DNA of 64,000 nt from Bolinopsis microptera (taxonomy: Eukaryota > Ctenophora > Tentaculata > Lobata > Bolinopsidae), in contig NC_087084.1 of the NCBI RefSeq assembly GCF_026151205.1, forward strand, positions 14,803,760-14,867,759, written 5' to 3'. The first letter of the stretch is position 1; each line of letters opens with the position of its first letter. Below the pieces are notes generated by a model. The model ran no database searches. It was not told where the DNA came from and saw nothing but the letters and a program-made list of their open reading frames with translations. This document shows, piece after piece, positions 1-21,500 of the stretch. The position numbers were made by a program, and so were the translations under genes.

Positions 1-93
1 CACTATTTGTGTCGGTGTTCCTGTTTTTAATAACGGGAACGTTTGTGGTACTGCCTCTATTCTCGGAGGAAAGTAGGGTCACCACCCTGTTGG
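1..93 (+). CDS. Upstream SLC7 paralogue, penultimate exon
   Basis: Open in the frame starting at base 3 and rich in Leu, Val and Phe. It ends in phase 1 at base 93, with the donor at 94-95. It corresponds to 16954-17050 of the downstream gene, and both exons end in a Gly codon split across the intron. Confidence 0.8.
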
Positions 94-792
94 GTACGTG
101 AGGAATACTTAATGGATAATTAATTAATTAATTAATTACTTGATGGATAGTTAATTAATTCATTATTAATTACTTAAAATTACCTGTTAAAAGTTCAAGA
201 AACTTCCTAGGATACCCCTTCAGTGCATACTGTAAACATAGTTGATAGTACTATTACTATTATATTACTATTATTACTTAATGGATAATTAATAGATTCA
301 TTCAAATAATGAATCAATTTCTATAATCGTATAAAATTCGTTTTTGGAGGATGAGGGAAGTATTTATTAATAATTAATTAAACACGAAGGATTTTAAAAG
401 AAATATTGCCAATATTTGAACAACAAACCTTGACAGGTCTATGCTGGATACCACTAGGAGCAGCGTTTTACGGTATCCGGCATCTTATAACACGGTATCT
501 TGTTAAGCAGAATGCGGTACCCGGCATCTTATAGCACGGTATCTTGTTAAGCAGAATGCGGTACCCGGCATCTTGTAACATGGTATATTGTTAAGCAGAA
601 TGCGGCATCTTACAGCACGGTATCTTATCAGGTCTAAGCTGGTTACCACTAGGAGCGGCAGTTTACGGCATCCGGCATCTTATTAAACAGTGCTGCTACA
701 AGAAGCTCGAACAGAAGACCTCAAGTCAGTCTAGTTTAGATTCTGGGTATAGTGAGGTTGACCGACACATCAAGGAATGTAAACTTAGCTAA
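1..792 (+). CDS. SLC7-type amino-acid transporter, 3' end only (upstream paralogue)
   Basis: The last two coding exons of a light-chain-type amino-acid transporter run in from the left edge. The exon at 1-93 reads a hydrophobic helix containing LITGTFVVLPLFS and ends one base into a codon at a GTACGTG donor. It aligns with the penultimate exon of the complete SLC7 gene downstream (LITGTFVILPLFS) in both sequence and phase. Two competing terminal exons follow, at 437-534 and 632-792. Polyadenylation signals AATAAA occur at 855-860 and 888-893. The two genes are therefore tandem paralogues in the same orientation. The family exchanges amino acids across the plasma membrane; substrate cannot be inferred from this fragment. 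Confidence 0.8.
437..534 (+). CDS. Upstream SLC7 paralogue, terminal exon version A (short tail)
   Basis: Follows a TTGACAG acceptor and reads GLCWIPLGAAFYGIRHLI, then a short tail ending at TAG 532-534. WIPLGA matches the WLPLGA of the downstream gene's last exon. No polyadenylation signal lies between this stop and version B, so a transcript using A would need the B-side poly(A) site. It may be a decaying duplicate. Confidence 0.55.
491..631 (+). repeat. 44-bp tandem repeat at the end of terminal exon A
   Basis: The 44-bp segment beginning at 491, which encodes the tail and stop of exon A, is repeated at 535 and again, shortened, at 579. The array runs up to the acceptor of terminal exon B. 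It is the small-scale version of the junction-linked repeats in the downstream gene. Confidence 0.75.
632..792 (+). CDS. Upstream SLC7 paralogue, terminal exon version B (long tail)
   Basis: Follows a TTATCAG acceptor and reads GLSWLPLGAAVYGIRHLIKQ. A polar cytosolic-type tail rich in Lys, Ser and Glu follows, ending at TAA 790-792. It is in the same phase as version A and clearly duplicated from it. It lies just upstream of two AATAAA signals, so it is the more likely functional C-terminus. Confidence 0.7.
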
Positions 793-1749: not shown

Positions 1750-2935
1750 TCAATTTTGGTCGACACACGTTAACTAAGAGCAGAATGAAGCAAGTTGAAG
1801 AACTATTGCATACTACTCCAGTAGCAGGGAGTAGTTGAGTGTGCAATTTGGTGTATAGAGTTTTTGCTACTGGATATATGGTTAAATAGGTCATTGGTAA
1901 CTCAAATCACCGAGAGCCTCGCCCATATGTCATATTAGCAAAAAACTCTATACATCGAAGTGCACACTCAACTCCTCCCTGCTACTGCAGAGTATATGTT
2001 GAATGCGTCAAATTGGATGTGCTTTCTGTGGAGATACGTACCTGTGTGCCGCCCCCGCTGACTTCTTTTCCGCCCAACTAAAATTTGTCTAATTTCTTAA
2101 GGAAGAAAACATGCCTTGTTTTTTGCCGACCCGTACAGACTTTTTTAGCGTCGACCGAATGTTCAAGTGGACGTAGTTTAGCGTAGAGTCTCACGCAGTA
2201 GAGTCCGGACCCAAGCAAAAAATGTGATAGTCGAGTATAGAGTGATTCATCAGATCATCCCATTTCCTCTTGACTAATGTTAACTACATCCTGGAGGGGG
2301 ATATTTAAAACAAATAAGTGATACGAAAGGATTGTATTAGCAGGAGCTTTCTAAATACTTGTGTAAATCGTCTTCAGTAAATCGTCTTCTTTAACTACAT
2401 CATATATCATTTCAAGTCCCAGTTAACAGTTAGACACATTCCTCATTTCAAGGTGATTAGATAATTGGTTTACAGCTCCCCCAGACCAATTATAAAGTCT
2501 TTTGATTCCTGATAGCTTCCGTTACCAGTCTACAAAGCTGTCTCATCTTGTGACGTTACATTTTTATTTTTATTTTAAGAACATTCTTGTATATTATTTA
2601 TTTTCCTATTTAGTCAAGACGTGAGTGTTAGGGCTCTCATTGACGAATTTATTTATGTTTAATCCTGTTTAATCCTGTTTAGTTGCTAGCTCTTCGTTGG
2701 GTATTATATATCCTTGTTATTGCGATTGGTGACGTGTCTTTAGTGACAATAAGATATTTAGATATGACTTATGAGAGCGAGCGCTAAAAGTAAATAGGTT
2801 TTTACTCATTCGATCCTTGATCTTAAACTATTACCCGTTCAATTTTGGTATAAACACGTAAACTTAGTGCAGAATAAAGCAAGTTATACAACTATTTTAT
2901 ACGTATCAAATTGGATGTGCTTTCGGTGGAGATAT
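1750..2935. repeat. Pair of related dispersed segments
   Basis: The stretch at about 1760-2045 (TAAGAGCAGAATGAAGCAAG onward) is recognisably related to 2850-2935 (TTAGTGCAGAATAAAGCAAG onward). The stretches at about 2170-2270 and 2460-2500 are related to 3180-3260 and 3295-3345. This looks like two diverged copies of an approximately 0.5-0.8 kb element, with rearranged order. No coding capacity was seen. Confidence 0.6.
1810..1995. mobile_element. Foldback (MITE-like) element, about 186 bp
   Basis: Two roughly 70-base arms, 1810-1880 and 1921-1995, are imperfect reverse complements; both carry the core AGTTGAGTGTGCA or its complement. They flank a short loop. The related segment at 2880-2935 runs straight across the insertion point (ACTATTTTATACGTATCAAA) without the element, so it acts as a related empty site. 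No transposase is encoded, and the superfamily is not determined because the target duplication is ambiguous (TATA-like). Confidence 0.7.
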
Positions 2936-4439
2936 AGCGCGGGCCGTTTAATTATGGTTAGGGTTTTAGCATATAACTATAAGTATATACTTCAGATAAG
3001 AATCTGGTGAGATATAGGGTTGGGATCTCAATAATCCCTCAGGGCCATCTATTTCTAAAGAACATGTTTAAGTAAAACAAAATATCTAATCTTGTGTGAG
3101 TTTTTGACTTTTAATAGATAATAATTATTATATATATTTTTGAGTAAATATTGGCTGGTACTTTGGGCCGGTCCCTAACGAAAAACGTGATAGTCGAGTG
3201 TAGACTGATTCATCAGATCATCCTATTTGGTTTACAGCTCCCCAGACCAATTATAAAGTCTAACATTTCCTCATTTCGAGCCCGTGAGCGGGTGAGCCGT
3301 AGAGTCTGACGCAGTAGAGACTGCAGTAGAGTCCGGACGCAAGCTGGGGTGGTCGTTACGCCACTGTGCACTTGCATAAAGCATAAAATATAAATGATAA
3401 GACGAGTTTATCTCATTTTTTCTAATATTGGATTATAAACAAACCCTGCTTGCATTGGACGTGGTGCTTCTTCAATGGACGTTCATGCAGATTTCTAAAA
3501 ATATATTTAAAACCTCCTCGTTATAATACAAAGTAATCTGCCTGGAAAATTGAACACATTATGAACATTATCTTGAACACATTATGCAAGATAAGCAGAG
3601 AACGTGTCTAATCTTGAATATCAGTTAAGATAAAGATGCTGGGAAATAATATCTTATGAAAATAAGGTGATAGACAAACAGATGTTTCCTCGCTCGGGGG
3701 CAATGCAGTTTCCTATCATACACAGTCAAAGCTAAAACGATCACGTGGTGTTATTACGAGTAACGTTATTGGTCAGGAGCCAATCCCTCCGGGCTATTTA
3801 AGCTTAAAATATAATTCTGTTTATTTTAATTTTTGTCTGGTTTTTCTGTTTACCTCATACTTGGTATCCTCACCTTAAACTCCGGAAAATTCTTGTTCTG
3901 TAGCAGTAGCTTTTGCTGAATTTAATGAATAAGGCGAACGTGGTTTAAATTGCTACAGCTGATTTCAATATCTTTGCTCAGTCTTACATGTAAAAAAACT
4001 AACTTCATGAATATTATCGGTCTACCTCCATCAATTCTGATAAGAGATGGATTAGTCGGAATCTTACGTCGGAATTTATAATCTTGCTGATATAATATAT
4101 GAACGGTCTTAAAACAAATTATAGGCCCTTAAAATTGGCATTCTGAATAACAGTTGAACAGGTAATGTAATAACAATACCGTTATCATCTGACAATGTTC
4201 CAAAACCCTAAAAAGATAAGTAGATTTTTGGAGAATCACTCAGCAATCAGCATCAATACAAAGCAATTTCACGTCTTTTTCAACATTATCTGAGCGGTTT
4301 AATTACGGGCCTTGCTAATAAAACAATTGAAACCGTGTTTCGTTACATTTGATTAGGATATCTGGTATTTTTACTGATTAATTTGTCATACCCCTTATTG
4401 TTTCACGTAGTATCCCATCTCATAATTACAGCAATATTA
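2936..4439. other. Spacer upstream of complete SLC7 gene
   Basis: AT-rich sequence without recognisable exons on either strand. It contains the second copy of the dispersed segment (to about 3345). Nothing else is supported. Confidence 0.5.
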
Positions 4440-4633: not shown

Positions 4634-4672
4634 ATGAAGGGGGACAATGAGATGGCACCACTCTTTAATAAG
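4634..4672 (+). CDS. SLC7 gene exon 1 (start)
   Basis: First ATG after the leader repeat; 13 codons (MKGDNEMAPLFNK) ending in phase 0 at AAG|GTAACA. The short acidic/polar cytosolic N-terminus suits the family. It joins the exon 2 acceptor cleanly. Confidence 0.8.
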
Positions 4673-7600
4673 GTAACATTTTATAGTTTTCTTGTGTTTA
4701 GTTGATAAACTTTGTCCGCGCCAATTTGGCTAAAATATGTGATTTTGAAGTTTAAACGCCAATGAAAACAGAGGAAAAGTATCGGGTGATCCTGACAAAT
4801 ATTTCCTTGTGCTTCAGAAATTTTATTAATCCATACACTAAATAATATATTTCCTTGTGTTTCAGGAAGGGTTTGAACCGAAGGTACAAAGAACAGTAGG
4901 AGTGCTAGCTGCCAGTGCTGTGTTATTTGGAAACTGTGTCGGTGCAGGAATCTTCATTTCTCCCAAAGGTACCCTATTAAGATTTTAGATATCTTCAGAT
5001 TCTGTTTGATTACCAAAGTAAGTAAGACTCTAGTACTAAAATTACCGCTAATAATGTCCCAGGAGTCTACGAGAAGGCAGCAAGCCCTGGAGCAGAACTT
5101 GTTAATTAAAATGGTCCGAGAATTCCGAGTTTTCCAGTAGTATCAACTAGATACCATGCTCAGAGCTAAATAATTGAACTAAATAAATTTTTAAATAAAC
5201 TAAATAACTAATAATTGAACTAAATAAATTTTTAAATAAATTTTCATTTCAGGGGTCTACGAGAAGGCAGGGAGCCCTGGAGCGGGACTGTTGATATGGG
5301 GACTAGCTGGTATTATTGCTACACTCTGTACTCTAGCCTACGCTGAGCTAGGTAATTATTGCTACACTCTGTACTCTAGCCTACGCTGAGCTAGGTAATT
5401 ATTGCTACACTCTGTACTGTAGCCTACGCTGAGCTAGGTAATTATTGCTACACTCTGTACTCTAGCCTACGCTGAGCTAGGTAATTATTGCTACACTCTG
5501 TACTCTAGCCTACGCTGAGCTAGGTAATTATTACTACACTCTGTACTCTAGCCTACGCTGAGCTAGGTAATTATTGCTACACTCTGTACTCTAGCCTACG
5601 CTGAGCTAGGTAATTATTGCTACACTCTGTACTCTAGCCTACGCTGAGCTAGGTAATTATTGCTACACTCTGTACTCTAGCCTACGCTGAGCTAGGTAAT
5701 TATTGCTACACTCTGTACTCTAGCCTACGCTGAGCTAGGTAATTATTACTACACTCTGTACTCTAGCCTACGCTGAGCTAGGTAATTATTGCTACACTCT
5801 GTACTCTAGCCTACGCTGAGCTAGGTAATTATTGCTACACTCTGTACTCTAGCCTACGCTGAGCTAGGTAATTATTGCTACACTCTGTACTCTAGCCTAC
5901 GCTGAGCTAGGTAATTATTGCTACACTCTGTACTCTAGCCTACGCTGAGCTAGGTAATTATTGCTACACTCTGTACTCTAGCCTACGCTGAGCTAGGTAA
6001 TTATTGCTACACTCTGTACTCTAGCCTACGCTGAGCTAGGTAATTATTGCTACACTCTGTACTCTAGCCTACGCTGAGCTAGGTAATTATTGCTACACTC
6101 TGTACTCTAGCCTACGCTGAGCTAGGTAATTATTATTACACTCTGTACTCTAGCCTACGCTGAGCTAGGTAATTATTGCTACACTCTGTACTCTAGCCTA
6201 CGCTGAGCTAGGTAATTATTGCTACACTCTGTACTCTAGCCTACGCTGAGCTAGGTAATTATTGCTACACTCTGTACTCTAGCCTACGCCGAGCTAGGTA
6301 ATTATTGCTACACTCTGTACTCTAGCCTACGCTGAGCTAGGTAATTATTGCTACACTCTGTACTCTAGCCTACGCTGAGCTAGGTAATTATTGCTACACT
6401 CTGTACTCTAGCCTACGCTGAGCTAGGTAATCATTGCTACACTCTGTACTCTAGCCTACGCTGAGCTAGGTAATTATTGCTACACTCTGTACTCTAGCCT
6501 ACGCTGAGCTAGGTAATTATTGCTACACTCTGTACTCTAGCCTACGCTGAGCTAGGTAATTATTGCTACACTCTGTACTGTAGCCTACGCTGAGCTAGGT
6601 AATTATTACTACACTCTGTACTGTAGCCTACGCTGAGCTAGGTAATTATTGCTACACTCTGTACTCTAGCCTACGCTGAGCTAGGTAATTATTGCTACAC
6701 TCTGTACTGTAGCCTACGCTGAGCTAGGTAATTATTACTACACTCTGTACTGTAGCCTACGCTGAGCTAGGTAATTATTGCTACACTCTGTACTGTAGCC
6801 TACGCTGAGCTAGGTAATTATTGCTACACTCTGTACTCTAGCCTACGCTGAGCTAGGTAATTATTGCTACACTCTGTACTGTAGCCTACGCTGAGCTAGG
6901 TAATTATTGCTACACTCTGTACTGTAGCCTACGCTGAGCTAGGTAATTATTGCTACACTCTGTACTCTAGCCTACGCTGAGCTAGGTAATTATTGCTACA
7001 CTCTGTACTCTAGCCTACGCTGAGCTAGGTAATTATTGCTACACTCTGTACTCTAGCCTACGCTGAGCTAGGTAATTATTACTACACTCTGTACTCTAGC
7101 CTACGCTGAGCTAGGTAATTATTGCTACACTCTGTACTCTAGCCTACGCTGAGCTAGGTAATTATTGCTACACTCTGTACTCTAGCCTACGCTGAGCTAG
7201 GTAATTATTGCTACACTCTGTACTCTAGCCTACGCTGAGCTAGGTAATTATTGCTACACTCTGTACTCTAGCCTACGCTGAGCTAGGTAATTATTGCTAC
7301 ACTCTGTACTCTAGCCTACGCTGAGCTAGGTAATTATTGCTACACTCTGTACTCTAGCCTACGCTGAGCTAGGTAATTATTGCTACACTCTGTACTCTAG
7401 CCTACGCCGAGCTAGGTAATTATTGCTACACTCTGTACTCTAGCCTACGCTGAGCTAGGTAATTATTATTACACTCTGTACTCTAGCCTACGCTGAGCTA
7501 GGTAATTATTGCTACACTCTGTACTCTAGCCTACGCTGAGCTAGGTAATTATTGCTACACTCTGTACTCTAGCCTACGCTGAGCTAGGTAATTATTGCTA

Positions 7601-10600
7601 CACTCTGTACTCTAGCCTACGCCGAGCTAGGTAATTATTGCTACACTCTGTACTCTAGCCTACGCTGAGCTAGGTAATTATTGCTACACTCTGTACTCTA
7701 GCCTACGCTGAGCTAGGTAATTATTGCTACACTCTGTACTCTAGCCTACGCTGAGCTAGGTAATCATTGCTACACTCTGTACTCTAGCCTACGCTGAGCT
7801 AGGTAATTATTGCTACACTCTGTACTCTAGCCTACGCTGAGCTAGGTAATTATTGCTACACTCTGTACTCTAGCCTACGCTGAGCTAGGTAATTATTACG
7901 ACACTCTGTACTCTAGCCTACGCTGAGCTAGGTAATTATTGCTACACTCTGTACTGTAGCCTACGCTGAGCTAGGTAATTATTACTACACTCTGTACTGT
8001 AGCCTACGCTGAGCTAGGTAATTATTGCTACACTCTGTACTCTAGCCTACGCTGAGCTAGGTAATTATTGCTACACTCTGTACTGTAGCCTACGCTGAGC
8101 TAGGTAATTATTACTACACTCTGTACTGTAGCCTACGCTGAGCTAGGTAATTATTGCTACACTCTGTACTGTAGCCTACGCTGAGCTAGGTAATTATTGC
8201 TACACTCTGTACTCTAGCCTACGCTGAGCTAGGTAATTATTGCTACACTCTGTACTCTAGCCTACGCGAGCTAGGTAATTATTGCTACACTCTGTACTCT
8301 AGCCTACGCTGAGCTAGGTAATTATTGCTACACTCTGTACTCTAGCCTACGCTGAGCTAGGTAATTATTACTACACTCTGTACTCTAGCCTACGCTGAGC
8401 TAGGTAATTATTGCTACACTCTGTACTCTAGCCTACGCTGAGCTAGGTAATTATTGCTACACTCTGTACTCTAGCCTACGCTGAGCTAGGTAATTATTGC
8501 TACACTCTGTACTCTAGCCTACGCTGAGCTAGGTAATTATTGCTACACTCTGTACTCTAGCCTACGCTGAGCTAGGTAATTATTGCTACACTCTGTACTC
8601 TAGCCTACGCTGAGCTAGGTAATTATTGCTACACTCTGTACTCTAGCCTACGCTGAGCTAGGTAATTATTGCTACACTCTGTACTCTAGCCTACGCTGAG
8701 CTAGGTAATTATTGCTACACTCTGTACTCTAGCCTACGCTGAGCTAGGTAATTATTGCTACACTCTGTACTCTAGCCTACGCTGAGCTAGGTAATTATTG
8801 CTACACTCTGTACTCTAGCCTACGCTGAGCTAGGTAATTATTGCTACACTCTGTACTCTAGCCTACGCTGAGCTAGGTAATTATTGCTACACTCTGTACT
8901 CTAGCCTACGCTGAGCTAGGTAATTATTGCTACACTCTGTACTCTAGCCTACGCTGAGCTAGGTAATTATTGCTACACTCTGTACTCTAGCCTACGCTGA
9001 GCTAGGTAATTATTGCTACACTCTGTACTCTAGCCTACGCTGAGCTAGGTAATTATTGCTACACTCTGTACTCTAGCCTACGCTGAGCTAGGTAATTATT
9101 GCTACACTCTGTACTCTAGCCTACGCTGAGCTAGGTAATTATTGCTACACTCTGTACTCTAGCCTACGCTGAGCTAGGTAATTATTGCTACACTCTGTAC
9201 TCTAGCCTACGCTGAGCTAGGTAATTATTGCTACACTCTGTACTCTAGCCTACGCTGAGCTAGGTAATTATTGCTACACTCTGTACTCTAGCCTACGCTG
9301 AGCTAGGTAATTATTGCTACACTCTGTACTCTAGCCTACGCTGAGCTAGGTAATTATTGCTACACTCTGTACTCTAGCCTACGCTGAGCTAGGTAATTAT
9401 TGCTACACTCTGTACTGTAGCCTACGCTGAGCTAGGTAATTATTGCTACACTCTGTACTCTAGCCTACGCTGAGCTAGGTAATTATTGCTACACTCTGTA
9501 CTCTAGCCTACGCTGAGCTAGGTAATTATTGCTACACTCTGTACTCTAGCCTACGCTGAGCTAGGTAATTATTGCTACACTCTGTACTCTAGCCTACGCT
9601 GAGCTAGGTAATTATTACTACACTCTGTACTCTAGCCTACGCTGAGCTAGGTAATTATTGCTACACTCTGTACTCTAGCCTACGCTGAGCTAGGTAATTA
9701 TTGCTACACTCTGTACTCTAGCCTACGCTGAGCTAGGTAATTATTGCTACACTCTGTACTCTAGCCTACGCTGAGCTAGGTAATTATTGCTACACTCTGT
9801 ACTCTAGCCTACGCTGAGCTAGGTAATTATTGCTACACTCTGTACTCTAGCCTACGCTGAGCTAGGTAATTATTGCTACACTCTGTACTCTAGCCTACGC
9901 TGAGCTAGGTAATTATTGCTACACTCTGTACTCTAGCCTACGCCGAGCTAGGTAATTATTGCTACACTCTGTACTCTAGCCTACGCTGAGCTAGGTAATT
10001 ATTGCTACACTCTGTACTCTAGCCTACGCTGAGCTAGGTAATTATTGCTACACTCTGTACTCTAGCCTACGCTGAGCTAGGTAATTATTGCTACACTCTG
10101 TACTCTAGCCTACGCTGAGCTAGGTAATTATTGCTACACTCTGTACTGTAGCCTACGCTGAGCTAGGTAATTATTACTACACTCTGTACTGTAGCCTACG
10201 CTGAGCTAGGTAATTATTGCTACACTCTGTACTCTAGCCTACGCTGAGCTAGGTAATTATTGCTACACTCTGTACTGTAGCCTACGCTGAGCTAGGTAAT
10301 TATTACTACACTCTGTACTCTAGCCTACGCTGAGCTAGGTAATTATTGCTACACTCTGTACTCTAGCCTACGCTGAGCTAGGTAATTATTGCTACACTCT
10401 GTACTCTAGCCTACGCTGAGCTAGGTAATTATTGCTACACTCTGTACTCTAGCCTACGCCTGAGCTAGGTAATTATTGCTACACTCTGTACTCTAGCCTA
10501 CGCTGAGCTAGGTAATTATTGCTACACTCTGTACTCTAGCCTACGCTGAGCTAGGTAATTATTACTACACTCTGTACTCTAGCCTACGCTGAGCTAGGTA

Positions 10601-13600
10601 ATTATTGCTACACTCTGTACTCTAGCCTACGCTGAGCTAGGTAATTATTGCTACACTCTGTACTCTAGCCTACGCTGAGCTAGGTAATTATTGCTACACT
10701 CTGTACTCTAGCCTACGCTGAGCTAGGTAATTATTGCTACACTCTGTACTCTAGCCTACGCTGAGCTAGGTAATTATTGCTACACTCTGTACTCTAGCCT
10801 ACGCTGAGCTAGGTAATTATTGCTACACTCTGTACTCTAGCCTACGCTGAGCTAGGTAATTATTGCTACACTCTGTACTCTAGCCTACGCTGAGCTAGGT
10901 AATTATTGCTACACTCTGTACTCTAGCCTACGCTGAGCTAGGTAATTATTGCTACACTCTGTACTCTAGCCTACGCTGAGCTAGGTAATTATTGCTACAC
11001 TCTGTACTCTAGCCTACGCTGAGCTAGGTAATTATTGCTACACTCTGTACTCTAGCCTACGCTGAGCTAGGTAATTATTGCTACACTCTGTACTCTAGCC
11101 TACGCTGAGCTAGGTAATTATTGCTACACTCTGTACTCTAGCCTACGCCGAGCTAGGTAATTATTGCTACACTCTGTACTCTAGCCTACGCTGAGCTAGG
11201 TAATTATTGCTACACTCTGTACTCTAGCCTACGCTGAGCTAGGTAATTATTGCTACACTCTGTACTCTAGCCTACGCTGAGCTAGGTAATCATTGCTACA
11301 CTCTGTACTCTAGCCTACGCTGAGCTAGGTAATTATTGCTACACTCTGTACTCTAGCCTACGCTGAGCTAGGTAATTATTGCTACACTCTGTACTCTAGC
11401 CTACGCTGAGCTAGGTAATTATTACGACACTCTGTACTCTAGCCTACGCTGAGCTAGGTAATTATTGCTACACTCTGTACTCTAGCCTACGCTGAGCTAG
11501 GTAATTATTGCTACACTCTGTACTCTAGCCTACGCCGAGCTAGGTAATTATTGCTACACTCTGTACTCTAGCCTACGCCGAGCTAGGTAATTATTGCTAC
11601 ACTCTGTACTGTAGCCTACGCTGAGCTAGGTAATTATTGCTACACTCTGTACTCTAGCCTACGCTGAGCTAGGTTAACAATCAAAACTTAATAACTTTGC
11701 AATCATAACAATACAACTTTAAACAATGAGAAAATCTCAACCAGGGATATTCACAAATAAATGAATAAAATGATTGTTCCCCAGGTACGATGATACCCCA
11801 GAGTGGGGGAGAGTTTGTGTACATAAAGAAAGCGTACGGGAAACTTGCAGCCTTCCTCTTCTCTTTTTGTGCAGTCTTCCTTATCAAGTGAGAAACAAAT
11901 CAGTGGCGAAACCACCTACTGCTCTATTAATCATTATCAATACTTAGCTTTTGTTTCTAGTTTTCTTACAAAAACTGATAACAAGTCTCGCGATAAAAGT
12001 AAACTCGTGCGCTGGTTATACCTTCATGCTAAGTCTTTCCTTCATTCGAATATTTTCATCTTCTCTGAGGGTCGCTCTTGAAGGACGACCCTGGCATTAA
12101 CACTACAACTCTTCTCAGGCCTGCCTCAATGTCAGTGGTTGCCCTGGTGTTCGGGGAGTACTTCTCTCACCTTACTTTGGGGCATGCTAGCAACTTATGG
12201 TTTTCTAAAGGAGTTGGTGCTCTTCTTATAGGTATAGTCCTGTTATTTACAAGACTGACCAAAATAACGACCGGTAAACATTACGATAAATAAACATTAT
12301 CCTCGGATACGTCTTTTTAAAAAACCCAGTTTATTCTAACCCCCTCCCCCTCCCTAGTGGTTCTAGGTATTTTCAACGTAGTGGGAGTACAGGCTATAAC
12401 CAAGCTACTTAGTCTAGCTTCAGTGTTAAAGTTAGCGGTGGTGGGGTTCCTTATCTCGTGTGGTATCACTGTCCTTATCAAGGGTCAAGGTTAGTTGATA
12501 TTATATGTGAAATATATTAAGACGCAATGAAATGATATTATGAAGGAGTATATTAGGACGCAATGAAACTATCACCACTAGATTAATATGTGATCTTTTG
12601 ATTCACAGGTATGCGACAAGGGATCGTTCACATATTACACATTTTGCTTTTCTACGCCTCCTACCACCAAGAAATATTGTTCTTGACAGCTAACCACTAC
12701 CAACAGGAGAAATAGGAAACTTCCAACCTCCCCTTTCCTTTGAAGGGTCCTCTACTAACCCCGCAGACTACGGGCTAGCATTTTACTACTGTCTGTGGAC
12801 ATTCCAAGCCTGGAATTCTCTAAACTACATGACAGGTACAATTCTTAAAGTTTTACTTTTTTACTTTTTACTTTTGCGACGAGTCCCCTAGTTCAGCAAT
12901 TTGGACGAGTATCTCTCGGAGCATCTGATAATCTACACCATGACCATATACAGTATACACATCAGTGGGTGCCCCACGCGCTACAATTTTAAATACATGA
13001 GTTAAGTATTTCTGCTTTTAACAACCTCACAATGAAAATGTTGGCAAACTTCCAAAGTCAGACTAACAAGACCCTTACACTCCCCAGAGGAGCTGAAGAC
13101 ACCAGAGAAGACACTGCCAATAGGAGGGTTGGTGGGGATGGTAGCAGTGGCTGTCAGCTACTTTCTCTGTAACCTAGCTTACCTCATGATGTTCTCACTG
13201 CACCACATTGTGGATACTAAAACTATTGCTATGGTTAGTTGCTAGGTTACTAGTGTAGTTGCTAGGTTACTAGTGTAGTTGCTAGCTTACCTCATGATGT
13301 TCTCACTGCACCACATTGTGGATACTAAAACTATTGCTATGGTTAGTTGCTAGGTTACTAGTGTAGTTGCTAGGTTACTAGTGTAGTTGCTAGCTTACCT
13401 CATGATGTTCTCACTGCACCACATTGTGGATACTAAAACTATTGCTATGGTTAGTTGCTAGGTTACTAGTGTAGTTGCTAGGTTACTAGTGTAGTTGCTA
13501 GCTTACCTCATGATGTTCTCACTGCACCACATTGTGGATACTAAAACTATTGCTATGGTTAGTTGCTAGGTTACTAGTGTAGTTGCTAGGTTACTAGTGT

Positions 13601-16600
13601 AGTTGCTAGCTTACCTCATGATGTTCTCACTGCACCACATTGTGGATACTAAAACTATTGCTATGGTTAGTTACTAGGTTACTAGTGTAGTTGCTAGGTT
13701 ACTAGTGTAGTTGCTAGCTTACCTCATGATGTTCTCACTGCACCACATTGTGGATACTAAAACTATTGCTATGGTTAGTTGCTAGGTTACTAGTGTAGTT
13801 GCTAGGTTACTAGTGTAGTTGCTAGCTTACCTTATGATGTTCTCACTGCACCACATTGTGGATACTAAAACTATTGCTATGGTTAGTTGCTAGGTTACTA
13901 GTGTAGTTGCTAGGTTACTAGTGTAGTTGCTAGGTTACTAGTGTAGTTGCTAGGTTACTAGTGTAGTTGCTAGGTTACTAGTGTAGTTGCTAGCTTACAT
14001 CATGATGTTCTCACTGCACCACATTGTGGATACTAAAACTATTGCTATGGTTAGTTGCTAGGTTACTAGTGTAGTTGCTAGGTTACTAGTGTAGTTGCTA
14101 GCTTACCTCATGATGTTCTCACTGCACCACATTGTGGATACTAAAACTATTGCTATGGTTAGTTGCTAGGTTACTAGTGTAGTTGCTAGGTTACTAGTGT
14201 AGTTGCTAGCTTACATCATGATGTTCTCACTGCACCACATTGTGGATACTAAAACTATTGCTATGGTTAGTACCAGCGGCCAGTTTCTAGTTTTAATAAT
14301 GGATTACAAAGTTTCCTTTTGGCAATTTGGTAACCTGTTGACGAACACATAACACATAACACATAACGTATGGCACAGGGTGGCACAGGGTGGCACAGGG
14401 TGGCACAGGGTGGGTTAACTCATAACTGTGTGGTTATCATCCGTCACCTAATTACTGAATTGCCGTTCTTATCGACTGTCAGTCATTTAGCCCAATCTTG
14501 AGCAATTCGTGCACGCCGTTTTGTGCACGCCGTTTTTTGTGTATTTGTAATGAGCCTTTTGCTTCAGGATAGTGGGTTCATAGCGTTTGGTAGAGCGGGT
14601 GAAATAATAATGACTCTAGGACTGCTGGTGTCGTGTCTAGGTTGTGTCGGAGGTTCTATCTGCTGCATTTCACGGAATCTTCAGGTAAGGACAATTGTTA
14701 AAACAAAGTTGGAAATTCCAGGAATTTAAATTTAGAATTCCTTAATTCAGTTTGGAAATATTTTAATCGGAAGAGGAACTTCTACTGACGTCTGACCTCT
14801 TAGACGCCAAGTCCTCTAATAATTTAATGCATTTGGCCCTGTGCCTCATATCTAATTATTGAACAGTGCAGGCGTACTTTCTGGAGTTTACCGTTATCAG
14901 TACTGTTAATGTTATCAGCCTGCAAACAAATATTTTAATACCAACTTTTAGGAACATTTGTCGGTTGATAAACTTAGTATTTTCTATAATTGAAATCAGA
15001 TTCAGATGTGGAGTATTTCCGATATGAGTGTTTCCTACTTCCATGGGAGCAATTACTAAACATTTTCAACCTTCAAACACAAGTACTTTACTTGTAATTG
15101 TACTCAAATACAAGGAAACATCACCATTCATCCTTCAGTGTACCGCGGACTCTGGAGTGTTTCCTACTTGTATGGGAGGGATTAGCAAACGGTTCCAAAC
15201 TCCCGTTAGAGCTATAATAATCGAGGTAAGAGATTGATTATTTCTTTCGAGATACGTCGTACCAAAGATATAGTGGAAAAATCAAAGTGATTCTCTCACG
15301 TTGAAAATTAAACTCGACGAAGAACCACAAAGAAAAAAATAGTTCAGTGCCAAACCCTAATTTCAAACACAAGGAAATATTTCCAAACTGTATCTCTCTC
15401 AGTGTACGACGATGTGCCTGTACATGTTATTTGACGCGAATGCCCTCATCCCCTTCCTCAGTACAGTAGAGTGGCTGTTTTACTGCGTTACTTTCTCAGT
15501 TATTCTCTACTTGAGATACAAGCACCCTGATACGCACAGACCCTTCAAGGTGAGTCACATACTACAACACCATTAATAACCTTCCCGCTCTTTAAGTGGA
15601 CATGGAGGGAGTGTTTGATCATTAACAACCTTCCCGCTCTTTAAGTGGAGGGAGTGTTTGATCATTAACAACCTTCCCGCTCTTTAAGTGGACATGGAGA
15701 GAGTGTTTGATCATTAACAACCTTCCCGCTCTTTAAGTGGAGGGAGTGTTTGATCATTAACAACCTTCCCGCTCTTTAAGTGGACATGGAGGGAGTGTTT
15801 GATCATTAACAACCTTCCCGCTCTTTAAGTGGAGGGAGTGTTTGATCATTAACAACCTTCCCGCTCTTTAAGTGGACATGGAGGGAGTGTTTGATCATTA
15901 ACAACCTTCCCGCTCTTTAAGTGGAGGGAGTGTTTGATCATTAACAACCTTCCCGCTCTTTAAGTGGACATGGAGGGAGTGTTTGATCATTAACAACCTT
16001 CCCGCTCTTTAAGGGGAGGGAGTGTTTGATCATTAACAACCTTCCCGCTCTTTAAGTGGAGGGAGTGTTTGATCATTAACAACCTTCCCGCTCTTTAAGT
16101 GGAGGGAGTGTTTGATCATTAACAACCTACCCGCTCTTTAAGTGGAGGGAGTTTTTGATCATTAACAACCTTCCCGCTCTTTAAGTGGAGGGAGTGTTTG
16201 ATCATTAACAACCTTCCCGCTCTTTAAGTGGAGGGAGTGTTTGATCATTAAAAACCTTCCCGCTCTTTAAGTGGAGGGAGTGTTTGATCATTAACAACCT
16301 TCCCGCTCTTTAAGTGGAGGGAGTGTTTGATCATTAACAACCTTCCCGCTCTTTAAGTGGAGGGAGTGTTTGATCATTAACAACCTTCCCGCTCTTTAAG
16401 TGGAGGGAGTGTTTGATCATTAACAACCTTCCCGCTCTTTAAGTGGAGGGAGTGTTTGATCATTAACAACCTTCCCGCTCTTTAAGTGGAGGGAGTGTTT
16501 GATCATTAACAACCTTCCCGCTCTTTAAGTGGAGGGAGTGTTTGATCATTAACAACCTACCCGCTCTTTAAGTGGAGGGAGTGTTTGATCATTAACAACC

Positions 16601-17269
16601 TTCCCGCTCTTTAAGGGGAGGGAGTGTTTGATCATTAACAACCTTCCCGCTCTTTAAGTGGAGGGAGTGTTTGATCATTAACAACCTTCCCGCTCTTTAA
16701 GTGGAGGGAGTGTTTGATCATTAACAACCTTCCCGCTCTTTAAGTGGAGGGAGTGTTTGATCATTAACAACCTTCCCGCTCTTTAAGTGGAGGGAGTGTT
16801 TGATCAATCAAAAAAAACGTACTCACAATAGGACACAATCACATCCTACTTCTTGTTCCTAACAGCTTGGATTAATATTTCTGTCTCTCTAGAGACCCCC
16901 TTTATTAGTTCAACTAATTACTTAATTAAACTAATTTAACTAATTTCCTCCAGGTCCCAATATTTATATCAGTTATACTATTCCTGATAACTGGAACTTT
17001 TGTAATCCTACCCCTCTTTTCTCAAAGCAGCCGCATGCCAACTATACTGGGTACTTTTTAATATCATTAACAAATTAACGAATCGAAAAAGTAAATTTAC
17101 AGCCAAGTTTTATATTTCAGCAAAAATTTTCGAATCTAAAATGAAAGCTGGAGTTGAAATTTGAATAATTTAATTATTATTTGCAGGGTTGATGTGGTTA
17201 CCGCTCGGGGCCCTGATGTACGCTGTCAGATACTATACCTCAACGCACTGTAAAGCTTTGACATTGTGA
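4634..17269 (+). CDS. SLC7-type (LAT / glycoprotein-associated) amino-acid transporter, 13 exons, 464 aa
   Basis: Exons: 4634-4672, 4866-4968, 5253-5351, 11785-11887, 12119-12231, 12358-12489, 12707-12835, 13088-13233, 14568-14684, 15139-15225, 15403-15549, 16954-17050, 17187-17269. All thirteen junctions are GT-AG and in phase, and total 1395 coding bases including the TGA stop. Family hallmarks in order: GAGIFISPKG in the broken first helix (residues about 39-48), SGGEFVYIKKAYGK, KPASMSVVALVFGEY, FYYCLWTFQAWNSLNYMTEE, LKTPEKTLP, then an LRYKHPDTHRPFK cytosolic loop before the last helices. Length fits the 12-helix APC-superfamily light chains (about 480-510 aa). Family role: Na+-independent amino-acid exchange at the plasma membrane. 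The loop between helices 3 and 4 has no cysteine, although classical light chains use one there to bond the heavy chain. Introns 3, 8 and 11 and the 3' end are swollen by minisatellites. Confidence 0.93.
4798..4865 (+). repeat. Duplicated acceptor region before exon 2
   Basis: ATTTCCTTGTGCTTCAG (AG at 4816-4817) is followed 48 bases later by ATTTCCTTGTGTTTCAG, the acceptor that exon 2 uses. The upstream copy is an intact-looking decoy acceptor. Confidence 0.7.
4866..4968 (+). CDS. SLC7 gene exon 2
   Basis: Follows TGTTTCAG and ends in phase 1 before GTACCC. It encodes helix 1, including NCVGAGIFISPK, the substrate-binding unwound segment diagnostic of the family. Confidence 0.95.
5063..5110 (+). 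pseudogene. Decayed copy of SLC7 exon 3
   Basis: After a CCCAG acceptor the sequence reads GVYEKAASPGAELVN and then TAA. It is a near-copy of the real exon 3 start (GVYEKAGSPGAG) 190 bases downstream, but it loses the frame and has no second half. Its inclusion would truncate the protein. Confidence 0.75.
5253..5351 (+). CDS. SLC7 gene exon 3
   Basis: Starts after TTTCATTTCAG and ends in phase 1 at GAGCTAG|GTAATT. It encodes GVYEKAGSPGAG plus helix 2 (IIATLCTLAYAEL). Its last 37 bases are the founder segment of the enormous array that follows, so the first donor is only one of 148 near-identical donors. Only this first one keeps the reading frame. Confidence 0.92.
5315..11672 (+). repeat. 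43-bp minisatellite, 148 copies, made of exon 3' end plus splice donor
   Basis: Each 43-base unit is the last 37 bases of exon 3 (ending TACGCTGAGCTAG) followed by the six intronic donor bases GTAATT. The span of 6358 bases equals exactly 148 exon segments and 147 donor hexamers; single-base indels near 8267 (-1) and 10460 (+1) cancel. Variants (CTGTAG for CTCTAG, ATTACT or ATTATT for ATTGCT, GCCGAG, AATCATT) define repeated blocks. The last unit is followed by GTTAAC instead of GTAATT. It is intronic to the transporter gene. Confidence 0.97.
11785..11887 (+). CDS. SLC7 gene exon 4
   Basis: Follows TTCCCCAG and ends in phase 2 at ATCAA|GTGAGA. It encodes the T-M-I-P-Q-SGGEFVYIKKAYGK loop and helix 3; the SGGE-Y/F-VYI motif is diagnostic for the family. 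Confidence 0.95.
12119..12231 (+). CDS. SLC7 gene exon 5
   Basis: Follows CTTCTCAG and ends in phase 1 at ATAG|GTATAG. It reads PASMSVVALVFGEY, then a loop with His, Thr and Asn but no Cys, then the next helix. An apparent longer reading frame through 12293 is intron read-through. Confidence 0.9.
12358..12489 (+). CDS. SLC7 gene exon 6
   Basis: Follows a pyrimidine-rich acceptor (CCCTCCCTAG) and ends in phase 1 at CAAG|GTTAGT. It encodes two hydrophobic stretches joined by FNVVGVQAITKLLSLASVLK, equivalent to the family's N-x-x-S/G-V-K/Q segment. Confidence 0.92.
12707..12835 (+). CDS. SLC7 gene exon 7
   Basis: Follows CCAACAG and ends in phase 1 at ACAG|GTACAA. It reads an extracellular polar loop, then FYYCLWTFQAWNSLNYMT, the helix-6 signature of the family (G/A-FY-x-x-LW-x-Y/F-x-x-WN-x-LNY). 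Confidence 0.95.
13088..13233 (+). CDS. SLC7 gene exon 8
   Basis: Follows CTCCCCAG and ends in phase 0 at GCTATG|GTTAGT. It encodes EELKTPEKTLP and helix 7. Its last ~57 bases plus the donor seed the 108-bp repeat that follows. Confidence 0.93.
13177..14269 (+). repeat. 108-bp minisatellite: exon 8 3' end plus donor, 10 copies
   Basis: Junction ATG|GTTAGT recurs at 13234, 13342, 13450, 13558, 13666, 13774, 13882, 14050, 14158 and, altered to GTTAGTACC, at 14266. Each unit has the exon 8 end (from GCTTACCTCATGATGTTC) and 20-bp GTTGCTAGGTTACTAGTGTA subunits. The unit from 13882 is 168 bp because it holds three extra 20-bp subunits. Like the exon 3 array, it duplicates a working exon end with its donor. 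Confidence 0.95.
14346..14412 (+). repeat. Short tandem repeats in SLC7 intron 8
   Basis: ACACATA is repeated about three times, followed by four copies of GGTGGCACAG. Confidence 0.8.
14568..14684 (+). CDS. SLC7 gene exon 9
   Basis: Follows TTGCTTCAG and ends in phase 0 at CTTCAG|GTAAGG; 39 codons. It includes DSGFIAFGRAGEIIMTLGLL and ISRNLQ, matching the family's helix 8 region that ends in SR. Confidence 0.93.
15002..15058 (+). pseudogene. Decayed copy of SLC7 exon 10
   Basis: Reads VFPTSMGAITKHFQ, clearly related to VFPTCMGGISKRFQ of the real exon 10 about 120 bases downstream. It lacks a good donor and loses the TPVRA segment. It is probably a relic of local duplication. Confidence 0.65.
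15139..15225 (+). CDS. SLC7 gene exon 10
   Basis: 29 codons, phase 0 at both ends, between ATCCTTCAG and GAG|GTAAGA. It corresponds to the family's REG-x-LP...TP-x-x-A loop (here ADSGVFPTCM...TPVRA); the usual Arg-Glu-Gly is altered to Asp-Ser-Gly. Confidence 0.88.
15403..15549 (+). CDS. SLC7 gene exon 11
   Basis: 49 codons, phase 0, between CTCTCTCAG and TTCAAG|GTGAGT. It encodes two helices and the LRYKHPDTHRPFK loop, the conserved LR-x-K-x-P-x-x-x-RP-F/Y-K signature. Confidence 0.95.
15571..16806 (+). repeat. 43/49-bp intronic minisatellite in SLC7 intron 11, about 28 copies
   Basis: Begins 21 bases after the exon 11 donor. The unit contains AACCTTCCCGCTCTTTAAGT and GGGAGTGTTTGATCATT. 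Early units alternate between a 49-bp form (with an extra ACATGG) and a 43-bp form; later ones are all 43-bp. Confidence 0.95.
16954..17050 (+). CDS. SLC7 gene exon 12
   Basis: Follows CCTCCAG and ends in phase 1 before GTACTT. It is homologous to 1-93 of the upstream paralogue, including the same junction phase. Confidence 0.93.
17187..17269 (+). CDS. SLC7 gene exon 13 (terminal)
   Basis: Follows TATTTGCAG. It reads LMWLPLGALMYAVRYYTS and a short tail to TGA 17267-17269. Homologous to the two terminal exons of the upstream paralogue. Confidence 0.9.
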
Positions 17270-17903: not shown

Positions 17904-18210
17904 GAGATCTCAGAAATTAGAAAAGATCCGATCTTGCAGCGGCGTGCATTTATAGGTCAAACAGGGTGGGCCAGAATTAAAGTAACGTCAGGATATTCTG
18001 TTACCTGGTTACTTGTGGACGACTCTGTATATTTATAATTTGTTGAACTATTATAATTTAACGTTTGTTTTATTTGAGGAATGACCTCCAGGACAGGTGT
18101 ATGTTGACACAATTTTTATTTTACTTATTCACATATTCAGTAATTTGTATCTATATTCATTTACTAAGCTATTCTCGTTGTCATTAAATTGTCAAAGAGG
18201 TTTAAAACAA
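17904..18210. other. Gap between SLC7 and NCKX genes
   Basis: Convergent intergenic sequence. I searched its minus strand for the missing final NCKX exon (a run with Asp first, then an S-N-x-x-GSN-type alpha-2 motif) and found nothing. Confidence 0.5.
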
Positions 18211-18440
<230 letters not shown>

Positions 18441-18445
18441 TTTAC

Positions 18446-18573
18446 CGGTACACTAGTTCCAGCAGCCACTACAACGAGTCCCATTATGTAGTCGTTAAAG
18501 CCAACAATACAGCCGAACCTCTCAACTAACAATACCATTCCGTAACTTAGTACTGCTATCCATAGCACACTAC
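18446..18573 (-). CDS. NCKX exon, alpha-2 repeat (last one found)
   Basis: Acceptor ATTTCCAG, donor ACCG|GTAAAT. After completing a Gly codon it reads [17 protein letters not shown], then [18 protein letters not shown], and ends in phase 0. In the family the next residue is Asp, so the alpha-2 motif is split exactly at this intron. Confidence 0.9.
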
Positions 18574-21500
18574 CTGGAAATATGAACATTTAACACGTGA
18601 CTTCCAAATAAGGGCATAAAATAACGCCGACCTCATTCTGACAAGTTTCAGTGCAGGTAATTGTATTTTAGTGCGAATGTCACTAAATTGATTTTAAAGT
18701 ATATCTTGGTTTATTGGACTAAATTGGATCCACACATTATTGATCTTATATCGTACTATGATTTACCTCTTTCATTCTTTACAGTTCATAGAAATGGACA
18801 ATGGACATGTGATGTAGTATGTAGTATGTAGTATGTAGTATGTAGTACGTAGTATGTAGTATGTAGTATGTAGTATGTAGTATGTAGTATGTAGTTTGTA
18901 GTATGTAGTATGTAGTATGTAGTATGTAGTACGTAGTATGTAGTATGTAGTATGTAGTATGTAGTATGTAGTATGTAGTATGTAGTATGTAGTAAGTAGT
19001 ATGTAGTTTGTAGTATGTAGTATATAGTATGTAGTATGTAGTACGTAGTACGTAGTATGTAGTATGTAGTATGTAGTATGTAGTATGTAGTATGCAGTAT
19101 GCAGTATGTAGTATGTAGTATGTAGTATGTAGTTTGTAGTATGTAGTATGTAGTATGTAGTACGTAGTACGTAGTATGTAGTATGTAGTTTGTAGTATGT
19201 AGTATGTAGTATGTAGTACGTAGTACGTAGTACGTAGTACGTAGTATGTAGTATGTAGTATGTAGTATGTAGTATGTAGTATGTAGTATGTAGTTTGTAG
19301 TATGTAGTATGTAGTATGTAGTATGTAGTATGTAGTATGTAGTATGTAGTTTGTAGTATGTAGTATGTAGTATGTAGTATGTAGTATGTAGTACGTAGTA
19401 TGTAGTATGTAGTATGTAGTATTTAGTATGTAGTAAGTAGTATGTAGTTTGTAGTATGTAGTATGTAGTACGTAGTACGTAGTACGTAGTATGTAGTATG
19501 TAGTATGCAGTATGCAGTATGTAGTATGTAGTATGTAGTATGTAGTATGTAGTATGTAGTATGTAGTATGTAGTACGTAGTATGTAGTATGTAGTATGTA
19601 GTATGTAGTATGTAGTAAGTAGTATGTAGTTTGTAGTATGTAGTATGTAGTATGTAGTATGTAGTACGTAGTACGTAGTACGTAGTATGTAGTATGTAGT
19701 ATGTAGTATGTAGTATGTAGTATGTAGTATGTAGTATGTAGTATGTAGTATAACATGTGATGTTGTATAAAACCCCAGATAAGATACCTATTGAAATTTC
19801 CTAATTCTATTTGTCGCTGCGTGCTGCAGGGAACAGAAACTAGTAAATACTAAACCTATACAATAATAATATAATGTATAATGTATAATGTATAATGTAT
19901 AATGTATAATGTATAATCTAAACCCAAACTCACCAACGAAAGAGAGCAAATAATACTTCTTGAGATGAGGTTTCATAGTGTTAGGTATAGTAAATGAGAA
20001 GAGGAGCTGGAAGGGGAAAGAAGCAGTGAAGTAGAAGATATTGATGAAGTAGCGGAGGAGGGAGCAGGCTCCGGCGGGTCGTTCTGGCAGGCTGGTTAAT
20101 ACTTTGGGGCAAACCTGGGGTATCATGAAGGTGTTAGGGGGAGGGGGTCATACTTGTAATATAGGGGGGGGGGTCATACTTGTAATATAGGGGGGGGGAG
20201 GGAGGGGGTCATACTAGTAATATCACGACGTATAGGGGAGAGTTCCTCAAAATTAAGATGTAAAAGTCCAACACAGGATAAATAAAAATTCCACCAACAA
20301 TCCCACAAACCTCACAGCAGCAGACTGTGACCTCATCAAAGTCCTCTTCCTCCCCCTCCGTCTCCGTGCTCTTATCACGCGGCGGCGTGACGTCACGCGG
20401 CAGATTAATGACGTCACGTTGCGTGTCCGTCCCGGGAGAGGAGCTACTACTGTGCCGCGCCTCTCCGTTAGTTTTCGTAACGTCGTCCACACAGACAGAG
20501 TCCAGACTCTCGCTCTTGTGTACTCCAGGGTCACGTGACCAGGGTTTCTCCTCGGGTTCTGTAGAGGGTTCGGATTGGTAGACATTGGACCTGCTGGCGT
20601 CTTCTAGGGGGCACCATTAGCAACATCTTAAATCTTATGCGAGGGGGGGGGGGGGGGGGGGGGGGGGCACCATTAGCAACATCTTAAATCTTATGCGAGG
20701 GGGGGGGGGGGGGGGTGCACCATTAGCAACATCTTAAATCTTATGCGAGGGGGGGGGGGGGGGCACCATTAGCAACATCTTAAATCTTATGCGAGGGGGG
20801 GGGGGTGCACCATTAGCAACATCTTAAATCTTATGCGAGGGGGGGGGGGGCACCATTAGCAACATCTTAAATCTTATGCGAGGGGGGGGGGGGTGCACCA
20901 TTAGCAACATCTTAAATCTTATGCGAGGGGGGGGGGGGGCACCATTAGCAACATCTTAAATCTTATGCGAGGGGGGGGGGGGGGGGCACCATTAGCAACA
21001 TCTTAAATCTTATGCGAGGGGGGGGGGGGCACCATTAGCAACATCTTAAATATTATGCGAGGGGGGGGGGGGGCGGCACTATTAGCAACATCTTAAATGT
21101 TATGAGAGGGGTGGGGGGGGGGGGGCACCATTAGCAACATCTTAAATCTTATGCGAGGGGGGGGGGGGCACCATTAGCAGCATCTTAAATCTTATGCGAG
21201 GGGGGGGGGGGGGAACCATTAGCAACATCTTAAATCTTATGCGAGGGGGGGGGAACCATTAGCAACATCTTAAATCTTATGCGAGGGGGGGGGGGCACCA
21301 TTAGCAACATCTTAAATCTTATGCGAGGGGGGGGGGGGGAACCATTAGCAACATCTTAAATCTTATGCGAGGGGGGGGGGCACCATTAGCAACATCTTAC
21401 ATCTTATGCGAGGGGGGGGCACCATTAGCAACATCTTAAATCTTATGCGAGGGGGGGGGCACCATTAGCAACATCTTAAATCTTATGCGAGGGGGGGGGG

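What the first reader, a model, noticed from the sequence alone, without database searches (positions are those of the whole stretch)
5315..11672. 148 tandem copies of an exon end together with its splice donor
The 43-bp unit is the last 37 coding bases of SLC7 exon 3 plus the donor GTAATT. The transcript therefore presents 148 near-identical 5' splice sites in a row. Using any donor but the first adds a multiple of 43 bases and meets an in-frame TGA within the first added unit. The gene either chooses the first donor with high precision or makes large amounts of unproductive RNA. I know of no described case of a working exon/intron boundary amplified to this degree.
Basis: seen in the sequence. 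Interest (0 to 1): 0.88.

Follow-up and report, generated by a model that had tools for sequence, protein, structure and literature searches.

The report
Splice donor repeated 148 times
In an amino-acid-transporter gene of a probably animal genome, a short DNA repeat that includes the end of an exon and its splice signal has grown to 148 copies, so the cell most likely has to pick the first of many near-identical cut sites; the kind is known from a human clotting gene, but I did not meet it at this scale in the papers I could search.

Summary
There are 148 CTAG|GT donors from 5352 to 11673, period 43. 147 are near-identical (144 GTAATT, 3 GTAATC); the last is GTTAAC. They follow exon 3 of an intact 13-exon SLC7-type gene model. 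147 of 148 donors would give the same early stop, so only the first is productive.

The claim of no described precedent does not hold. Human factor VII intron 7 has 37-bp repeats over its donor, where only the most upstream site is normally used ("oriented scanning"). What is new is the scale and recurrence. A tandem paralogue 11.6 kb upstream has the same array with 27 donors. Exon 8 of the same gene has a second donor array (10 copies). A mitochondrial-carrier gene has 17 exon-end+donor copies, and another permease 25.

Tandem repeats are abundant here (16% of a 40-kb sample, 10% of 34 kb of homology-picked loci, 53% of the window). Neutral repeat growth over a donor, tolerated because the first donor wins, explains it best. 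The unit's own AG scores as a poor acceptor, which disfavours recursive splicing. No RNA was available, so donor use is inferred.

The parts
4634..4672 (+). exon 1, start of coding
   Evidence: gene model
4866..4968 (+). exon 2
5253..5351 (+). exon 3 (99 nt); its last 37 nt are the first repeat unit's exonic part
5352..5357 (+). first donor GTAATT, the only one of 148 that keeps the frame
5305..11674 (+). 43-bp array spanning exon 3 end and donor, 148 donors
   Evidence: TRF, script
11673..11678 (+). terminal donor GTTAAC, weaker; in paralogue A its preceding AG is AC
11785..11887 (+). exon 4
12119..12231 (+). exon 5
12358..12489 (+). exon 6
12707..12835 (+). exon 7
13088..13233 (+). exon 8
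13174..14271 (+). second array over an exon end and donor: mostly 108-bp units, 10 copies of exon-8 end + GTTAGT, the real exon end included
   Evidence: TRF rows, count
14568..14684 (+). exon 9
15139..15225 (+). exon 9b
15403..15549 (+). exon 10
15571..16806 (+). 43-bp array wholly inside intron 10, unrelated sequence
16954..17050 (+). exon 11
17187..17269 (+). exon 12 with stop codon
17215..17851 (+). 66-bp array spanning the last coding bases and the stop codon, about 10 copies
   Evidence: TRF; 9 copies by pattern

Best explanation
A minisatellite seeded by a small tandem duplication across the exon 3/intron 3 boundary has grown by block duplication and unequal exchange, in a genome where tandem repeats are abundant. 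The gene tolerates it because the spliceosome takes the most upstream (exon-proximal) donor, as described for human factor VII intron 7, and discards all later copies with the intron. The seam probably created the donor now used: units carry GTAATT, while the sequence after the last unit carries the weaker GTTAAC. Shown: anatomy, gene integrity, length difference between paralogues (148 against 27 donors, about 5% diverged at synonymous sites), second array in the same gene, other cases in the genome. Inferred: first-donor use, neutrality and the seeding step.
For: Array and donors. Only donor 1 is productive. Gene intact (464 aa; Pfam PF13520 E 2.6e-52; best solved relatives are cystine/glutamate and b(0,+) transporters, E down to 5.3e-71). 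A/B exons 1-8: 11 synonymous and 6 nonsynonymous differences, dN/dS 0.17. Unit donor scores 7.82 (18th-19th of 35 donors, leave-one-out); terminal donor 4.22, below 33 of 35. In paralogue A the terminal site reads AC|GTTAAC (score -1.56), so if exon 3 is used, A most likely uses an array donor. U1 with the canonical ACTTACCTG near its 5' end in the 4 loci read of 10 matches. Tandem repeats cover 16.4% of a 40-kb sample, 9.9% of 34.5 kb of loci picked by homology, and 53.5% of the window. Of the 4 arrays of 600 bp or more in this gene, 3 lie over a coding boundary; random placement gives at least that with P 0.13, so no special seeding is needed. Other donor-spanning arrays: exon 8 of A/B/C (4/10/4 copies), mitochondrial carrier on C9 (17), permease on C12 (25). 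Precedent for first-donor choice: PMC6627357 (passages).
Against: No RNA evidence. The last donors would give introns of ordinary length (9 of 148 give 460 nt or less; 28 of 35 introns of the three genes are 126-454 nt), and a length preference would favour those. In human duplicated genes, repeats at exon-intron boundaries were reported to change splicing, and 66% of such intron changes also had transcripts that keep the repeat (PMC2812944, passages). The dN/dS covers the time since the A/B split, not since the array reached 148, and rests on 17 changes. An upstream-wins rule predicts fewer acceptor-spanning arrays, yet one with 3 copies was seen (L026).
Confidence: 0.72

Rival explanations
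1. Donor choice is leaky: many transcripts use donors 2-147, meet the TGA after codon 92 and are degraded, so array length sets how much transporter is made (unproductive splicing as a dial).
For: All 147 other donors give the same early stop. The donors are nearly the same and no unusual fold was found in three stretches, one over the first donor (z 0.86, -0.44, -0.23). Length differs between paralogues, 148 against 27. Boundary repeats change splicing in human duplicated genes (PMC2812944, passages), and a minisatellite is over-represented near alternative splicing regions in C. elegans (PMC4039745, passages).
Against: No sign that the array is kept or tuned. Internal donors are neither purged nor specially protected: 1 of the 6 variable unit positions lies in the donor hexamer, in 145 units of length 43. 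A longer array (40100-47515) lies in a stretch of the window where I modelled no gene.
Confidence: 0.13
2. The array removes itself in pieces or repairs wrong choices: each unit runs from GT to AG, so donor 1 joined to the end of any unit recreates exon 3|GTAATT, and a wrong donor can be cut back later. This would be a chain of zero-length exons (recursive splicing).
For: Every one of the 147 units begins GTAAT and ends CTAG, so any whole-unit excision leaves no trace in the mRNA.
Against: The unit's three AGs score 1.33, -3.14 and -7.11 as acceptors, while 34 of 35 real acceptors of the three genes score 5.0 or more; the lowest real one, 1.44, is close to the best unit AG. A single unit is 43 nt, against a shortest intron of 126 nt among the 35.
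Confidence: 0.05
3. The late donors win because they give introns of normal length, and the window's gene is being silenced by its own array, with paralogues A and C doing the work.
For: 28 of 35 introns are 126-454 nt; only the last 9 donors give 460 nt or less.
Against: All 13 modelled exons are intact and the few A/B changes are mostly synonymous. Differences in exons 3-8 polarised with C: 6 in A, 4 in B, 3 unresolved, so B shows no faster decay.
Confidence: 0.06
4. The copy number is an assembly error and the true array is much shorter.
For: 148 near-identical units in 6.4 kb are hard to assemble; no reads were available.
Against: Ordered unit variants with a block duplication beyond 100 shuffles. 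Same array with 27 donors in the paralogue on the same 16.35-Mb contig.
Confidence: 0.04

Closest known systems
Human factor VII (F7) intron 7, 37-bp repeats over the donor
   Same: The authentic donor lies in the first of several highly homologous repeats and the most upstream donor is used (PMC6627357, passages seen; the primary paper it cites, Borensztajn 2006, was not held).
   Different: F7 has few units (intron 7 alleles H5-H7 named in PMC3166910, passages seen; that this is the same repeat, with about 5-8 units, is recalled). Here 147 near-identical donors, and several genes in one genome. First-donor use is untested here.
Variable internal tandem repeats at exon-intron boundaries in human segmental duplications (PMC2812944)
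   Same: Minisatellites over exon-intron boundaries of recently duplicated paralogues, differing in copy number (passages seen).
   Different: There on average 30-bp units repeated 4 times, with new introns and alternative transcripts reported; here the intron is old and copy number reaches 148.
Intron gain by tandem duplication (PMC4974935, abstract seen)
   Same: A tandem duplication carrying AG|GT, so each unit runs GT to AG.
   Different: No intron gained: paralogue C and the C4 paralogue have this intron at the same place without the array.
Recursive splicing sites (recalled)
   Same: AG directly followed by GT, repeated.
   Different: Weak acceptor signal before the AG.

Membership tests
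Donor-spanning minisatellite of the F7 intron 7 type | first unit contains exon end and authentic donor | tested here: met
Donor-spanning minisatellite of the F7 intron 7 type | downstream units carry the same donor | tested here: met
   147 of 148 GTAATT or GTAATC
Donor-spanning minisatellite of the F7 intron 7 type | copy number varies | tested here: inconclusive
   between paralogues 148 against 27 donors; alleles not available
Donor-spanning minisatellite of the F7 intron 7 type | only the most upstream donor is used | not testable with these tools
   needs RNA; the frame shows only that donor 1 alone is productive
SLC7 light-chain amino acid transporter | amino acid permease family by sequence | tested here: met
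   PF13520 E 2.6e-52; closest solved chains are xCT, b(0,+)AT and LAT1
SLC7 light-chain amino acid transporter | transport activity and heavy-chain partner | not testable with these tools
   no experiment
Intron gained by AGGT tandem duplication | the intron is new, absent from relatives without the duplication | tested here: not met
   intron present at the same position in C and in the C4 paralogue, read by eye
Recursive splice sites | functional acceptor signal at the AG before the GT | tested here: inconclusive
   score 1.33, below 35 of 35 real acceptors, but the lowest of these is 1.44 and the matrix is small

The most novel reading that the evidence does not exclude
Arrays of exon end plus donor are a recurrent class in this genome, seeded in different genes (SLC7 exons 3 and 8, a C12 permease, a mitochondrial carrier). 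They persist because 5'-to-3' donor choice makes every copy after the first invisible, so the genome holds a graded natural series (4, 10, 17, 25, 27 and 148 donors) that tests how far upstream-first choice can be pushed before it leaks.
Probability: 0.4. Interest if true: 0.7.

Novelty: new variant of a known kind. Interest (0 to 1): 0.52.

Why it matters
How the spliceosome picks one of several equally good donors is an old question, mostly studied with two to a few duplicated sites (recalled). This gene and its paralogue offer 148 and 27 copies of one donor in very similar contexts, with a clear readout, since any donor but the first gives an early stop. Together with the 17- and 25-copy cases they would show whether upstream-first choice holds outside mammals and over more than 6 kb. 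The arrays also matter for annotation and evolution: the end of a coding exon is itself a repeat unit, and one crossover at such an array may have made a chimeric third gene.

Tried and rejected
Intron gain by AGGT duplication: rejected, because the intron is older than the array. Recursive splicing or 15-nt in-frame microexons from the inner TCTAG: disfavoured by acceptor scores. RNA folding setting the first donor apart: no sign (z 0.86, -0.44, -0.23). Preferential seeding at coding boundaries in this gene: not significant (P 0.13 for at least 3 of the 4 arrays of 600 bp or more; smaller arrays in the gene were left out). Rfam on the window: no match at gathering threshold. Species: not identified; sponge genome notes were listed and an assembly-size search found 0 papers, so I name no species. 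A lag count of unit variants was not significant (observed maximum 6, null 95% value 6); the alignment test was. One search used a wrong start for exon 10 of A and C in the acceptor training set; one search replaces it, with leave-one-out (near-identical copies from the other paralogues stay in the training set, which inflates scores of real sites). In one search the terminal donor fell below all real donors; with leave-one-out it falls below 33 of 35, and I use the latter. The survey covered 39 of 50 homology loci (11 of the 30 mitochondrial-carrier loci left out as overlapping) and extended reading frames on the wrong strand for minus-strand hits, so I use from it only the arrays at L015, L016, L026 and L028. 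Exon-level family searches for tandem exon series: PF00153 106 matches, 17 of them in one series on C9; PF13520 19, PF00083 10, PF00005 20, PF00122 17, no series. This is a weak test: PF13520 listed none of the C13 genes or their arrays, so it missed the very case in hand.

Literature: 8 searches on precedent and 2 on species. One search listed 20 of 80 papers; two searches found none. I found no case near 148 donors in these; that is no proof of absence. Also looked at: PMC2423196 (passages), which cites the scanning model.

Full report
What is there. The window lies at 14,803,760-14,867,759 of contig C13 of an unnamed 264.65-Mb genome with 232 contigs. A script finds 148 CTAG|GT donors; 144 read GTAATT, 3 GTAATC and the last GTTAAC. 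The 147 units between them fall into 10 variants, 106 identical. Every unit runs from GT to AG.

The gene. Thirteen modelled exons between 4634 and 17269 give an open frame of 464 aa. It is an SLC7-type transporter by Pfam (PF13520, E 2.6e-52) and by solved relatives (xCT, b(0,+)AT, LAT1). Exon 3 (5253-5351, 99 nt) ends with the 37 bases that recur in each unit. Joining each donor to exon 4 leaves the frame open only for donor 1; the other 147 give the same stop after residue 92. Exon 3 is 99 nt with equal phases on both sides, so skipping it would also keep frame.

Paralogues. Two more genes lie upstream in tandem. A (14,796,830-14,804,293) is intact over 469 aa, and C over the 457 aa modelled; no match to exon 1 was found in C. 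A has the same array with 27 CTAGGT donors, and its last copy reads AC|GTTAAC, so if exon 3 is used, A most likely uses an array donor. C has the same intron at the same place with no array, as does a paralogue on C4, read by eye; hence the intron is older than the array. A is close to B upstream of and through exon 3 (blocks of 97-99%) and in exons 4-8 (96-100%), while introns 4-7 match at only 87-95%. From three bases after exon 8 onward A matches C instead, at 95-98%. One unequal crossover in the exon-8 array, giving the order C-A-B, is the simplest account; the uneven identity leaves room for gene conversion. A and B differ by 11 synonymous and 6 nonsynonymous changes in exons 1-8 (dN/dS 0.17). 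The arrays now hold 148 and 27 donors, while the 112 bases after them differ at 2.

Splice signals. With a matrix from the three genes and leave-one-out, the unit donor scores 7.82 (18th-19th of 35) and the terminal donor 4.22 (below 33 of 35). The unit's own AGs score 1.33, -3.14 and -7.11 against 5.0 or more for 34 of 35 real acceptors and 1.44 for the lowest. The genome's U1 has the canonical 5' end in the 4 loci read of 10 matches. Folding of three stretches shows nothing unusual. Of 145 units of length 43, 6 positions vary, one of them in the donor hexamer; internal donors are neither purged nor specially kept.

Setting. Tandem repeats cover 53.5% of the window, 17.9% of the 40 kb upstream, 16.4% of 40 kb from five places that I chose at round coordinates, and 9.9% of 34.5 kb of loci picked by homology. 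Of the 4 arrays of 600 bp or more in this gene, 3 lie over a coding boundary: exon 3 donor, exon 8 donor, and stop codon. Random placement in the collapsed gene gives at least 3 of 4 with P 0.13. No special attraction to splice sites is needed.

Recurrence. Exon 8 plus donor is present 10 times in B, 4 in A and 4 in C, the real exon included. A mitochondrial-carrier exon on C9 has 17 copies of exon end plus GTAAAT, spaced 143-253 bases. A permease on C12 has 25 copies of ATGG|GTAGGT or its ATAG variant. These exon ends are inferred from homology and frame, not from RNA. One acceptor-spanning array of 3 copies was seen (L026). Four other family searches (PF13520, PF00083, PF00005, PF00122; 66 matches) showed no tandem series, but PF13520 missed even the genes in hand, so this says little. 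The C12 case came from an SLC7-like query and the C9 case from one family search, so no rate can be given.

Mechanism. Best reading: neutral minisatellite growth over a donor, tolerated because the most upstream donor is used. That rule is described for human factor VII intron 7, whose donor lies in the first of several 37-bp repeats (PMC6627357, passages; the primary paper was not held). That the first donor is the functional one here is inference from the frame and from selection on the gene; no RNA was available. The main rival is leaky choice with much unproductive RNA; boundary repeats in human duplicated genes do change splicing (PMC2812944, passages). Recursive splicing is disfavoured by the weak AGs.

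Novelty. A known kind (donor-spanning minisatellite; also boundary repeats in human duplicated genes) at an extreme copy number and with several cases in one genome. I rate it a new variant. Its value is as a natural test of donor choice.

Noticed in passing
G000:C13:14796830-14804293 (just upstream of and into window 1-534): Gene A looks chimeric: B-like through exon 8 (exons 4-8 96-100%), C-like after it (95-98%), switching at the exon-8 array; an unequal crossover at a minisatellite may have made a third gene.
   Followed up: partly
G000:C9:1287558-1290436 (L072, L073): Mitochondrial-carrier exon end plus donor GTAAAT present 17 times, with runs of an 11-bp repeat of varying length between; reading on past the donor meets TAA at once.
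   Followed up: yes
L028 1627-2951 (C12): 50-bp array of about 27 copies holding 25 donors of an amino-acid-permease exon.
   Followed up: partly
L026 1372-1508 (C29): 40-bp array of about 3 copies spanning a likely splice acceptor, with runs of C before the AG.
   Followed up: partly
window 13174-14271; L011 about 1930-3680; L012 6543-7993: Exon-8 copies inside the arrays of B and C resemble that gene's own exon (HHIVDTK in B, HQIVDTN in C), suggesting the array and the coding exon evolve in concert; A's copies are mixed.
   Followed up: no
window 5065-5099 and 15026-15072: Partial decayed copies of exon 3 (88.6%) and of exon 9b (78.7%) lie in the introns before the real exons.
   Followed up: no
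window 18164-18589, minus strand: An open frame resembling a potassium-dependent sodium/calcium exchanger exon (label from reading, no search) runs straight into a long AGAC repeat at its likely donor.
   Followed up: no
window 22844-23851, plus strand: A 335-aa open frame that reads like a seven-helix receptor (label from reading, no search).
   Followed up: no
G000:C67 and C12:2170079-2170930; C27 and C13:8095931-8097968: Matching hits with equal or near-equal scores on small contigs and chromosomes suggest leftover haplotype copies in the assembly.
   Followed up: no
window 15571-16806 and 20656-22443: Two further arrays in the same window also have period 43 but unrelated sequence; probably coincidence.
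   Followed up: no
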